Shown here: piece by piece, positions 10,421-58,434 of the stretch | Numbering within the stretch: position 1 is the stretch's first letter | How the letters are laid out: each line of letters begins with the position of its first letter | Notes under the pieces: generated by a model | The model's database searches: none | What the model was told of the DNA's origin: nothing | What the model saw: the letters and a program-made list of their open reading frames with translations, nothing else | Position numbers and translations under genes: made by a program | From: Candidatus Saccharimonadota bacterium | GTDB taxonomy: Bacteria > Patescibacteriota > Saccharimonadia > Saccharimonadales > Saccharimonadaceae | Direction of reading: 5' to 3' | NCBI GenBank assembly: GCA_017480035.1 | Contig: JAFVBJ010000002.1 | Span: 186,001-250,000 of the forward strand | DNA: 64,000 nt

Positions 10421-10648
10421 TTATTTACGAGTAGATTTTTTGTTGATAATAAGATGCGCTCCGTAAAGGATTGCGACTGCGACAATTATGCTGACGCCGA
10501 GAGAAATATTTTGCGTTGCTTTTCCGGCGGTGTCTTCGGTTGCCGTAGGCGCAGTACCGGTATCGCCAGCTGCTACAGAAGCATCTTCAACTTCTCCGGT
10601 TTCGTTAGCCTTGATTTTAACTATAATAGCCATACCATTAGCACCTGG
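10421..10648 (-). pseudogene. C-terminal membrane anchor cut off by in-frame UGA
   Basis: This stretch continues the frame of the upstream secreted protein without shift after a single TGA (10649-10651). It encodes PGANGMAIIVKIKANETGEV, a Thr/Ala/Glu-rich spacer, a membrane helix (ISLGVSIIVAVAILYGAHLI) and a basic tail NKKSTRK: the layout of a cell-surface anchor. There is an internal ATG at 10633 but no good ribosome site. Best read as the 3' part of one gene interrupted by a nonsense codon, or expressed by UGA read-through. Confidence 0.65.
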
Positions 10649-11308
10649 TCATACTTCTGAATCACTAAGTACGCCACCACCTTTAATTTTGACAGTTGGG
10701 TCGCTGCTGAAGATATAGCCGTCTTTAGCGACTAAATCCATAAAGGCGTAATAGTTAGTGTTGGCTTCGAATGTGCCTTCGAAGAACTCTGCGCCAGTGC
10801 CATCCTTGTCCCAAACTGCCATATCGAGTTCGTAAGTGTCGCCCGAGATTGAGGCTGAAGGTTCTTTGTCTGGCCAATCCCAGCCACCTTGGTCAACGAG
10901 TGTGACAGTTTCGCCGATTTTTGGTGGTTTAACGGTGATTTCGACGGATTTGATAAGTTTTACGGTGTTGATGCAAGCTAAAGCACCGCCGTCGAAATCG
11001 GCTGTACAAACTTTATAAGTTTTTGAGGCGTCAAAGTTGCCAGCTACATTATAAGAAAAACTTGTTGTGGTGCCGCTGACGGTAGTGTTAGCGTTTTCTG
11101 GGCCGGCAACGAGCGTGTCGCCAAGATAAACTTCAATTGAAGCGGCAAGCGTACCAGTGGTCGCTTCGCCTTCGACGTGAATCGAACTTCCGTCAACATA
11201 GGCTACGTGTGGAGTAACGGTTCCACCGGCTGCTATGGCGTTTCCGAGAGGAAGAGCCGTAGAAAGTGCGAGTGTGGCTAATAATGCGATTGATTTAATC
11301 TTATTCAT
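10649..11308 (-). CDS. Secreted surface protein, probably truncated by UGA
   Basis: 219 aa up to the TGA. Signal peptide MNKIKSIALLATLALSTALP (cleavage near AIAA, residue ~27). The mature part looks beta-rich, with Ig-like/fibronectin-like repeats of TVTPHVAYVDGSSIHVEGEA and GDTLVAGPENANTTVSG type. Cys pair around KVCTADFDGGALACIN could form a disulfide. The anchor needed to hold it at the surface is in the same frame beyond the stop. It follows another secreted-protein gene by 14 nt, so they form an operon. Possibly an adhesin; inference. Confidence 0.7.
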   Translation of the reverse strand: MNKIKSIALLATLALSTALPLGNAIAAGGTVTPHVAYVDGSSIHVEGEATTGTLAASIEVYLGDTLVAGPENANTTVSGTTTSFSYNVAGNFDASKTYKVCTADFDGGALACINTVKLIKSVEITVKPPKIGETVTLVDQGGWDWPDKEPSASISGDTYELDMAVWDKDGTGAEFFEGTFEANTNYYAFMDLVAKDGYIFSSDPTVKIKGGGVLSDSEV

Positions 11309-11322
11309 AACTTGCTCCTTCC

Positions 11323-12543
11323 TTAGTTCTTATCCGGGTTAATTTTACGTGAATATTTGCCACTAGTGCTAAGATCGAGGTAAATTCCCTTCTTTGAGCC
11401 ACTCAAGGTTCCGGCGTAGGTTGTTGAGGTTGAGCCGGCTTTCGAGACGGTGAAGTAGATACCGTTAAGGTTCGAGAGGTTTACGTCTGCAGTGTAAGTG
11501 TAGTGGCCTTTTCTAAGCCCTTCACCGCCACTTTCATAACAACTGTTGACGATGATTGATGGATCGAATGGATCTTCAAAGCTAGTTGCCGCACCCATCT
11601 TGATAGTTTTCTGGGTTCCGTTCTTATAGTCGAGCTTTGCGCTGACTTCATAGTCGGCACAGGTTTTGCCTTCATCGAAGTAAACAAGAGCGGTGATAAC
11701 TTTTTGGTTAGTCTCGATTGCTGGGAATGGTTCCTGAACTGCGGTACGGAAAATACGAATATAATAGGTTTTTGTGCCTTTTGTAACTTTGAAAATTACA
11801 CGGTCATAATAAGCTGAATTAAAGGTGATTTTGTGGCCACCGGCAACTGATGTGACGGTAACTGCGCCCGCATTTTCAAGATCTACTGCAGCGACACTGT
11901 CAAATGCGCCAGCTTCGCCTGAAAGGATAATCTCTGTTTGTTGCGGAATGACATACAAAGTTGCTGGATTTGCTTTAGTCGTGCCAGAAACGTCGTGGTA
12001 GAGGACGCTGTTTAAAGCGGCGCCAAAATCTGGTTCGTAGCCATCAGTGGCGTTTTTGATTGAAGCACCAGCATAATCTGCGCTCTTAATCAAAACTTTG
12101 AAGTTCCAATCGCCGAAGTGGGTATAGGCGTTTGCTTCGCGTGGAGCATTCATTGGGTTTAGAGCGAGACGGTTGTGTTCTCCGTCCTCATATTCCATCA
12201 CATCTTGCATAGTGTGGTCTGGATTCGCCGCTTTATAGGTGTCGTAAGCGGTCTTCAAAGCGAAAGTCGTGTTGTCGACGTCGACATTTACGGCGCTGAA
12301 AGTTTTTTCAGCGTGGTTGTCGGCTTCGATGTCGGTATCGCTATAAATCGTGTAAGTATTGTCAGTGTTAATATCTTCAAAGAGGTGATAACATGGAGTT
12401 TCCTCTCCACAATCCCAAATGAGATAGGCTTTGCCGTCAAAACTATCGGCGTGAACCGATGTTAACGGACAAAAAAGTCCCGCAGTCACCGCAAGCGCAG
12501 CTACCGTCGGGGCAACAGTTCTCTTATATGAAAAACGTTTCAT
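11323..12543 (-). CDS. Secreted orphan protein (406 aa)
   Basis: ATG 12543 (MKRFSYKRTVAPTVAALA) is chosen over an in-frame start 87 nt earlier because AAAGGGAGA lies just upstream and the signal peptide then starts correctly; cleavage is likely after VHA near residue 33. The mature part has four Cys (WDCGEETPCYH near residue 45; two more near 315 and 345) and long beta-rich stretches, including TYYIRIFRT. No domain is recognised and there is no C-terminal membrane anchor. It leads a two-gene surface operon with the following protein. Confidence 0.75.
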   Translation of the reverse strand: MKRFSYKRTVAPTVAALAVTAGLFCPLTSVHADSFDGKAYLIWDCGEETPCYHLFEDINTDNTYTIYSDTDIEADNHAEKTFSAVNVDVDNTTFALKTAYDTYKAANPDHTMQDVMEYEDGEHNRLALNPMNAPREANAYTHFGDWNFKVLIKSADYAGASIKNATDGYEPDFGAALNSVLYHDVSGTTKANPATLYVIPQQTEIILSGEAGAFDSVAAVDLENAGAVTVTSVAGGHKITFNSAYYDRVIFKVTKGTKTYYIRIFRTAVQEPFPAIETNQKVITALVYFDEGKTCADYEVSAKLDYKNGTQKTIKMGAATSFEDPFDPSIIVNSCYESGGEGLRKGHYTYTADVNLSNLNGIYFTVSKAGSTSTTYAGTLSGSKKGIYLDLSTSGKYSRKINPDKN

Positions 12544-21903: not shown

Positions 21904-22410
21904 TTATACCTCCTTTGCGGTCAGAACGAGGCGATGTGAATAATCTTGTCCGCCGAGCGGTTCGCCGTAGCAAGTCATGAGGATGAGAGTTGGAGTGTCG
22001 GTCTCGGAAACGATTTGTCCCATGTCGACGGAATTTTTCTCAATAATTTCACGAGAGGTGATTTTGTATGATTTATTGTCGAAAGTGAGAGTGTCGGCGC
22101 TCGAGACGTTTTTTAGGTCTTTGAATACGGTGCTGGAATGGCCGATAATGACGGTTTTGTGGTTTGTTGGTTGGTAAGCGCCAGCGATAGTGTCGGGAGA
22201 GATGAGTTGGTTGCCGGTGCGTTCGATGTCTCTGACACGAGCGATTAAACCGATTGACGGGATATAGAGACGTTCTTCGGAGGATGCATCGGCGGATTTT
22301 GGCATGAAGACGTAGGCCGTGAAGCCAGCAATCATGGCAAAATAGGCAATTCCGAGAAAAATACTCAGCTTAGTACGATGTAAATTAAACTTTTTACCTT
22401 CCCTTTTCAT
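21904..22410 (-). CDS. Sortase family transpeptidase 1
   Basis: 168 aa with an N-terminal membrane helix (about 14-35). The catalytic triad positions are visible: His91 in VIIGHSST, Cys147 in LILMTCYGE and Arg160 in YSHRLVLTA. It should join surface proteins to the wall or to each other. -10 box nine bases before ATG. It sits directly upstream of and probably coupled to the GH97 gene, which is unusual for a sortase. Confidence 0.88.
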   Translation of the reverse strand: MKREGKKFNLHRTKLSIFLGIAYFAMIAGFTAYVFMPKSADASSEERLYIPSIGLIARVRDIERTGNQLISPDTIAGAYQPTNHKTVIIGHSSTVFKDLKNVSSADTLTFDNKSYKITSREIIEKNSVDMGQIVSETDTPTLILMTCYGEPLGGQDYSHRLVLTAKEV

Positions 22411-27638: not shown

Positions 27639-27714
27639 TGGCAGGGGCGGCAAGACTTGAACTCGCGACACCTGGTTTTGGAGACCAGTGCTCTACCAAC
27701 TGAGCTACACCCCT
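27639..27714 (-). tRNA. tRNA-Trp (CCA)
   Basis: 76-nt cloverleaf with encoded CCA end. Anticodon loop CTCCAAA between CTGGT and ACCAG gives CCA. Acceptor AGGGGTG / CGCCCCT. Confidence 0.95.
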
Positions 27715-57906: not shown

Positions 57907-58434
57907 ATGTTTAGTATTATTGCGTGCGTTGGAAAAAATCTGGAACTCGGCAAGAATGGCGACCTCTGCTTTCATATTCCGGAAGATTTGAAGTATTTTA
58001 AGAAAGTGACCGAAGGCCATCCGGTGATTATGGGGTCGAGCACATATAAATCTCTCCCGAAAGCGCCGCTGCCAAAGCGCAAGAATATTGTTTTAACGCG
58101 TTCAGAGGGCACCAGAGACTATCCTGAAGAAGTAGTAGTCTTGCACTCGATTGAGGAAGTTTTGGGGCTCGTGGGGGCTCCAGAGGGCTTAGACGGGGAT
58201 TCTAACGGGAAGAAAGACGAAATTTTCGTGATTGGGGGCGGCTCGGTATATCGACAGTTCTTGCCACTTGCTTCGAAGTTATATCTGACAGAGGTAAAAC
58301 AGGGGTGTGATGGTGCGGATACATTTTTCGAAGAATTTGATAAGTCGAAATTCGATAGAGAGGTAGTTTCGAGCGGAAAAACTGGTGAAATTGAGTACGA
58401 TTTTGTCGTTTATACTAGGAAGGAGGAGCTATGA
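57907..58434 (+). CDS. folA: Dihydrofolate reductase with small insertion
   Basis: 175 aa, two bases after thyA. IIACVGKNLELGKNGDL, HIPEDLKYFKKVT (catalytic acid Glu), VIMGSSTYKSLP, and FVIGGGSVYRQFLP (NADPH site). Between EEVLGL and DEIFVIGG there are about 12 extra Gly/Asp-rich residues (VGAPEGLDGDSNGKK) encoded by an unusually GC-rich stretch. It regenerates THF after ThyA. Stop is TGA. Confidence 0.94.
   Translation: MFSIIACVGKNLELGKNGDLCFHIPEDLKYFKKVTEGHPVIMGSSTYKSLPKAPLPKRKNIVLTRSEGTRDYPEEVVVLHSIEEVLGLVGAPEGLDGDSNGKKDEIFVIGGGSVYRQFLPLASKLYLTEVKQGCDGADTFFEEFDKSKFDREVVSSGKTGEIEYDFVVYTRKEEL

What the first reader, a model, noticed from the sequence alone, without database searches (positions are those of the whole stretch)
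10421..11308. In-frame UGA separates a secreted protein from its membrane anchor
The frame is continuous from signal peptide to a C-terminal helix and basic tail except for one TGA at 10649-10651, followed by C (TGAC, a weak stop context). Other genes in the window end in TGA, so the code is not changed. Options: recent nonsense mutation, read-through giving free and anchored forms, or a sequence error. A regulated read-through of a surface protein would be new here.
Basis: partly seen in the sequence, partly recalled or inferred. Interest (0 to 1): 0.55.

Follow-up and report, generated by a model that had tools for sequence, protein, structure and literature searches.

The report
Nonsense codon in a surface protein
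A gut bacterium's surface-protein gene carries one stop codon where its intact relative has an amino acid, so this copy most likely makes a shortened, unanchored protein; it looks like an ordinary mutation (or sequence error), not a new way of reading genes.

Summary
ATG 11308 runs to TGA 10651-10649 (219 aa), and the same frame stays open for 75 more codons to a TAA at 10421. The tail is homologous coding sequence: a congeneric Saccharibacteria genome (G087) has an intact orthologue matching residues 6-295, with Trp at the aligned site. Distant domain homologues vary there.

The code is normal. RF2 is present, no UCA anticodon was found among 46 tRNA hits, and tRNA-Trp is ordinary. In 142 alignments from a 284-kb sample of this genome, this is the only stop inside a gene body.

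The stop falls in the last hairpin of a beta domain (modest confidence), has no downstream hairpin, and is absent from 14 of 14 congeneric B genes beside gene A. Best reading: a lineage-specific nonsense allele of an LPXTG-like surface protein, giving a truncated, unanchored product, perhaps with slight basal read-through. An assembly or strain artefact is not excluded. Regulated read-through has no support. The two-gene unit recurs in the genus, and 4 of 14 relatives lack the anchor outright.

The parts
10649..11308 (-). Gene B up to its in-frame stop: 219 aa, signal-peptide-like N-terminus, domain 1, most of domain 2; SD-like AAGGAAGGAG before ATG
10649..10651 (-). The in-frame TGA (followed by C); aligned with Trp in the intact orthologue of G087
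10421..10648 (-). In-frame continuation, 75 codons and TAA: last strand of domain 2, linker, LPXTG-like motif, hydrophobic helix, basic tail
10961..11218 (-). Domain 1 (residues 31-116), Ig/FN3-like beta sandwich in the model
   Evidence: FN5-FN6 of NEO1, 4bqb: Z 8.4, rmsd 2.3, 80 aligned, model 27-117; many ties; shared fold only
10610..10960 (-). Domain 2 (residues about 117-233), cut by the TGA at residue 220
10547..10564 (-). DTGTAP, LPXTG-like sorting motif (residues 249-254)
   Evidence: GTAP invariant in 4 of 4 rows
10424..10510 (-). Hydrophobic segment and basic tail (residues 267-295)
11323..12543 (-). Gene A, secreted-type protein without anchor, immediately upstream; partner of gene B in the genus
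21904..22410 (-). One of three sortase genes of this genome (C2:207907-208269)
27639..27714 (-). tRNA-Trp (CCA), 5-bp anticodon stem, G24 unchanged (numbered by hand): no sign of a UGA suppressor
57907..58434 (+). Dihydrofolate reductase ending in TGA at its expected C-terminus: control that UGA stops here

Best explanation
A lineage- or strain-specific nonsense allele. In an ancestor the gene encoded a secreted, LPXTG-like surface protein (signal peptide, Ig/FN3-like domain, second beta domain, DTGTAP motif, hydrophobic helix, basic tail), the second gene of a two-gene unit that recurs in the genus. A sense codon in the last hairpin of domain 2 (Trp in the one orthologue) became TGA. RF2 ends translation there, so the main product is a 219-aa exported chain lacking the last beta strand and the whole anchor; it is probably shed or degraded. 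A small unregulated amount of full-length protein may arise because tRNA-Trp misreads UGA. Shown: the reading frame, homology of the tail, the sense codon in the orthologue, the normal code, the uniqueness of the stop in what was sampled. Inferred: direction and recency of the change, fate of the product, the basal leak.
For: Intact orthologue in G087, 289-aa frame with no stop, 49% identity, Trp at the aligned site. Identity to it is similar before and after the stop: 102 of 212 and 30 of 70 aligned residues. RF2 over the curated cut-off. 45 of 46 tRNA hits named by ARAGORN, none with anticodon UCA; the 46th is an altered copy of tRNA-Asp. Canonical tRNA-Trp. In 142 non-overlapping alignments (41,747 residues) this is the only in-frame stop in the body of a gene; 338 query Trp columns are Trp in this genome. 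No stop between domain and anchor in 14 of 14 congeneric B genes beside gene A. No hairpin downstream. E. coli mass spectrometry finds mostly Trp at read-through TGA (PMC11126739, passages).
Against: The tail carries no second lesion. But a simulation kept it open in 2090 of 3000 runs even at 0.09 substitutions per site, so this only weakly limits the age. No reads or sister strains could be examined, so a sequence error or a minority allele in the assembly cannot be separated from a real mutation. Only one orthologue spans the site. More distant domain-2 homologues vary there: Trp in two G108 proteins aligned through G087 by tblastn (phmmer did not extend to it), but Ala in G166 and Gln in G119 by weak alignments. 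So the ancestral residue is not certain.
Confidence: 0.7

Rival explanations
1. The TGA is not in the organism: a base-calling or assembly error, or a minority strain allele caught in a metagenome consensus. The true gene is intact and ordinary.
For: A single substitution would suffice; only one such lesion in 142 gene alignments; three relatives come from metagenome assemblies of ruminant gut, and the own genome (772,806 bases, 3 contigs) may have the same kind of origin (inferred).
Against: The genome looks clean: 97.52% complete, 0.09% contamination, and no other broken gene body in the sample. No read data here.
Confidence: 0.18
2. Functional read-through: UGA is decoded as Trp by tRNA-Trp at a useful rate, giving free and anchored forms of one surface protein.
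For: Tail intact and homologous; the orthologue has Trp, the residue usually inserted at UGA; UGA followed by C, reported as raising read-through in yeast (PMC5289835, passages).
Against: Stop found in no relative seen; it truncates domain 2; no downstream hairpin (z 0.44, 0.63); tRNA-Trp without G24A change or 4-bp stem; another own gene also ends in TGAC at its homologous C-terminus (L069 17685-18848); for E. coli the passage seen names +4 A, not C, for tRNA-Trp misreading.
Confidence: 0.07
3. UGA is reassigned or becoming ambiguous (Trp) in this lineage, as reported for another Patescibacteriota family (JAKLIH01).
For: TGA stands where the one orthologue has Trp; UGA-to-Trp and UGA-to-Gly codes occur elsewhere in the phylum (PMC13092985, abstract and passages).
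Against: RF2 present; no UCA tRNA among 46 hits; 1 TGA against 338 Trp-Trp columns; 18 other homologous ORFs end at TGA, one of them a probable shadow ORF.
Confidence: 0.01
4. Two genes: translation restarts at the in-frame ATG 5 codons after the TGA and makes a 70-aa tail-anchored peptide.
For: ORF 10421-10633 starts with ATG shortly after the stop.
Against: That Met is not conserved (Leu in G087); the peptide would lack a signal peptide and begin at the last strand of a beta hairpin.
Confidence: 0.02

Closest known systems
Premature stop codons in LPXTG surface-protein genes (e.g. internalin A alleles of Listeria; PMC5131979, passages seen)
   Same: A nonsense codon removes the C-terminal sorting region, predicting a truncated, unanchored protein; intact alleles exist in relatives
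   Different: Different protein family, motif DTGTAP rather than LPXTG; no strain survey here; stop lies within a domain; organism is a gut Saccharibacteria, not a pathogen
UGA read-through by near-cognate tRNA-Trp (E. coli reporters, PMC11126739, passages seen)
   Same: UGA, with Trp as the expected residue
   Different: No measured read-through, no conserved stop, no stimulatory structure
UGA-to-Trp reassignment in Patescibacteriota family JAKLIH01 (PMC13092985, abstract and passages)
   Same: Same phylum, TGA where an orthologue has Trp
   Different: One codon only in the sample; RF2 kept; ordinary tRNA-Trp; TGA used as stop in other genes

Membership tests
LPXTG-type sortase-anchored surface proteins | N-terminal signal peptide | tested here: inconclusive
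   Lys near the start, hydrophobic core and A-x-A (V-x-A in one) seen by eye in 4 of 4 aligned homologues; no signal-peptide predictor was run
LPXTG-type sortase-anchored surface proteins | C-terminal motif, hydrophobic helix, basic tail | tested here: inconclusive
   Hydropathy scan finds helix plus basic tail preceded by [DN][TS]G in the in-frame tail and the model has a helix there (pLDDT under 50). The motif is divergent (GDTGTAP), lies after the stop, and no anchor family of Pfam or NCBIfam matched
LPXTG-type sortase-anchored surface proteins | Sortase encoded in the genome | tested here: met
   3 matches to PF04203 over the cut-off
LPXTG-type sortase-anchored surface proteins | Cleavage and wall attachment by sortase | not testable with these tools
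   needs biochemistry
Nonsense-truncated allele | Intact homologue with a sense codon at the site | tested here: met
   one orthologue, G087; distant homologues also have sense codons
Nonsense-truncated allele | Stop is not shared by relatives | tested here: met
   0 of 14 congeneric B genes beside gene A
Nonsense-truncated allele | Present in the cells, not only in the assembly | not testable with these tools
   no reads or sister strains
Programmed stop-codon read-through | Stop codon conserved together with the extension | tested here: not met
Programmed stop-codon read-through | Stimulatory RNA structure downstream | tested here: not met
   z 0.44 and 0.63
Programmed stop-codon read-through | Leaky tetranucleotide | tested here: inconclusive
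   TGAC here, but another own gene ends in TGAC too; literature passages differ by organism
UGA-to-Trp genetic code | RF2 lost or changed | tested here: not met
   prfB 439.8 bits, cut-off 370, no stops
UGA-to-Trp genetic code | tRNA reading UGA (UCA anticodon, G24A or 4-bp stem tRNA-Trp) | tested here: not met
UGA-to-Trp genetic code | Many in-frame UGAs at conserved Trp | tested here: not met
   1 site in 142 alignments from 284 kb of 773 kb

The most novel reading that the evidence does not exclude
The UGA is kept because its basal misreading as Trp sets a low ratio of anchored to shed surface protein: a switch from anchored to mostly free in one lineage of a genus whose relatives already differ in whether gene B has an anchor at all (4 of 14 do not).
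Probability: 0.06. Interest if true: 0.5.

Novelty: new member of a known kind. Interest (0 to 1): 0.14.

Why it matters
As it stands it is one more truncated surface-protein allele, of use mainly as a warning that a lone in-frame UGA with an intact tail need not mean recoding. The by-product is of more use: a recurring pair of a secreted protein and a small, usually anchored protein in gut Saccharibacteria, whose anchor is absent in several lineages, suggesting that display versus release of this protein is evolutionarily labile.

Tried and rejected
Genome-wide recoding: rejected. Suppressor tRNA: one odd tRNA-like gene (C2:256740-256814) was checked because ARAGORN did not name it; it is an 88% copy of the own tRNA-Asp with an 8-nt anticodon loop, so nothing suggests a UGA suppressor. 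Read-through hairpin: none. Restart of translation at the nearby ATG: Met not conserved. Age of the lesion from the intact tail: the simulation showed the tail is too short to tell. Conserved Trp at the site: I first read 3 of 3 from the tblastn alignments; one search showed that two further distant homologues spanning the site (G166, G119) have Ala and Gln there, so it is 3 of 5 and strict conservation is rejected. Family models: no Pfam or NCBIfam family for genes A or B at useful scores. Fold search of the read-through model tested mainly domain 1; domain 2 was barely covered, which shows nothing about its fold. First scan of genome contigs with the 219-aa part found no relative; the second, with an alignment, found 3. 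Exact search for sister sequences in viral contigs: none. First-pass stop scan was flooded by shadow ORFs and was replaced by the filtered. In one search, G087-to-own direction, 5 stops were listed; I dropped the 4 others (alignment positions 10 and 38 of 315, 479 of 484, 7 of 301) as lying at ends or before the start codon. The own-to-G087 direction listed 21 stops in G087 DNA, many at ends or in short shadow ORFs; these were not studied one by one. No paper in the library holds both 'Saccharibacteria' and 'stop codon readthrough'.

Full report
What is there. The feature lies on the minus strand. From ATG 11308 the frame reads 219 residues to TGA at 10651-10649, followed by C, then 75 more codons to TAA at 10423-10421. 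An SD-like AAGGAAGGAG precedes the ATG. An open stretch alone is weak evidence: 10 of 70 window ORFs, this one included, have at least 75 open codons after their stop.

The tail is coding sequence by descent. In the search of 174 congeneric genomes, 10 had a match, the own genome included; six of these are weaker matches to parts of the protein. G087 has an intact 289-aa frame aligned over residues 6-295 with 49% identity and no stop. G027 and G101 have shorter homologues (domain 1 plus the anchor), also without a stop. Named copies of these three loci are Candidatus Saccharibacteria from goat and roe deer gut. Identity to G087 is 102 of 212 aligned residues before the stop and 30 of 70 after it; to G027 and G101 it is 28 of 53 after it.

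The residue. The TGA aligns with Trp of G087, the only orthologue that spans it. Two secreted G108 proteins with domain 2, an NPKTG motif and a C-terminal helix also show Trp at that column when aligned through G087 by tblastn, though phmmer does not extend so far. Two more distant homologues do not: G166 has Ala and G119 has Gln in weak alignments. G172 and G085 stop short of the site. So the site holds a sense codon in all five seen, Trp in three; the ancestral residue is probably, not certainly, Trp.

The stop is inside a domain. In an AlphaFold model of the read-through protein (295 aa, mean pLDDT 65.1), strands 213-221 and 225-233 form the last hairpin of domain 2 and the TGA is residue 220. 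The model of the G087 orthologue (mean 58.3) shows the same pair, 207-214 and 220-228. Confidence there is about 58-66, so this is suggestive. Domain 1 resembles Ig/FN3-like sandwiches (for example 4bqb, Z 8.4, rmsd 2.3, 80 aligned), which may be only a common arrangement.

The code is standard. prfB scores 439.8 bits against a cut-off of 370. All 46 Rfam tRNA hits were examined: ARAGORN named 45 and none has a UCA anticodon. tRNA-Trp has anticodon CCA, an intact 5-bp anticodon stem and G24 (numbering by hand), so it lacks the Hirsh G24A change and the 4-bp stem described in PMC13092985 (abstract and passages). I compared 400 kb of G087 with 284 kb of this genome (the window plus 11 stretches of 20 kb, out of 772,806 bases). 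In 142 non-overlapping alignments with 41,747 residues, 5 stops were listed; 4 lie at alignment ends or before start codons and the fifth is this TGA. Elsewhere 338 Trp of G087 align with Trp. Of 136 own ORFs with homology, 19 end in TGA near the end of homology, this gene included and one probable shadow ORF among them; one other ends in TGAC.

No sign of programming. Two folds downstream of the stop give z 0.44 and 0.63. Searching with the upstream gene A as an alignment found it in 15 of 174 genomes, the own one included. In all 14 others a small B gene follows; for the distant ones I judged homology by eye from a shared A-D-Y-D-G-G-like stretch. Ten of the 14 end in a [P/A]-x-[TS]-G motif, a hydrophobic helix and basic residues. 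Four (G104, G096, G153, G095) end 2-3 residues after APNSG with no helix in frame. None has a stop between domain and anchor. In G082 gene B lies in the frame of gene A after A's TAA, but with an SD-like GGAGG and its own ATG between, so it reads as a separate gene.

Mechanism. Most likely one base change created a nonsense allele: RF2 ends translation, and the exported 219-aa chain lacks its last strand and anchor. Some full-length protein may leak through, because UGA in E. coli is misread mainly as Trp (PMC11126739, passages); this step is inferred. The closest parallel is premature stops in internalin A of Listeria (PMC5131979, passages). That anchorless B genes exist in the genus suggests that the loss is tolerable.

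Limits. There are no reads and no sister strains; the collection holds one genome per species. An assembly or strain artefact keeps a probability near 0.18. The intact tail says little about age: in simulation it stayed open in 2090 of 3000 runs at 0.09 substitutions per site. The stop comparison samples about 37% of the genome. No signal-peptide predictor was run, and no anchor family model matched the tail.

Verdict. The recurring A-B unit with variable anchoring is the more useful by-product.

Noticed in passing
window 10421-12543 and L104-L114: A two-gene unit (secreted protein A plus small protein B) is present in 15 of 174 congeneric genomes; 10 of 14 other B proteins have an LPXTG-like anchor and 4 of 14 end 2-3 residues after APNSG with no hydrophobic helix, an odd form of sorting motif.
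   Followed up: partly
L109, L110, L112, L114 (B genes of G082, G069, G129, G093): These B genes carry a C-terminal anchor but begin without an obvious signal peptide, close after A's stop; an SD-like GGAGG lies between in three of them, and in G082 B is in A's frame after a TAA. How they would be exported is unclear.
   Followed up: partly
G000:C2:256740-256814 (-), 6.7 kb beyond the window: A divergent second copy (88%) of tRNA-Asp with an 8-nt anticodon loop, beside a second tRNA-Pro(CGG), mirroring the Pro/Asp pair at C3:94429-94664; possibly a pseudo-tRNA or a frameshift-type tRNA.
   Followed up: partly
L129:8348-11651 (-), G000:C2 about 258.3-261.7 kb: Subtilase and AAA ATPase pair matching the IetS and IetA defence models of PADLOC (E 6.9e-65 and 3.3e-37), near the tRNA copies and what look by eye like ribosomal protein genes: a likely defence island.
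   Followed up: partly
L011, L014 (G108): Two related secreted-type proteins that carry domain 2 and an NPKTG-type anchor in a different arrangement.
   Followed up: no
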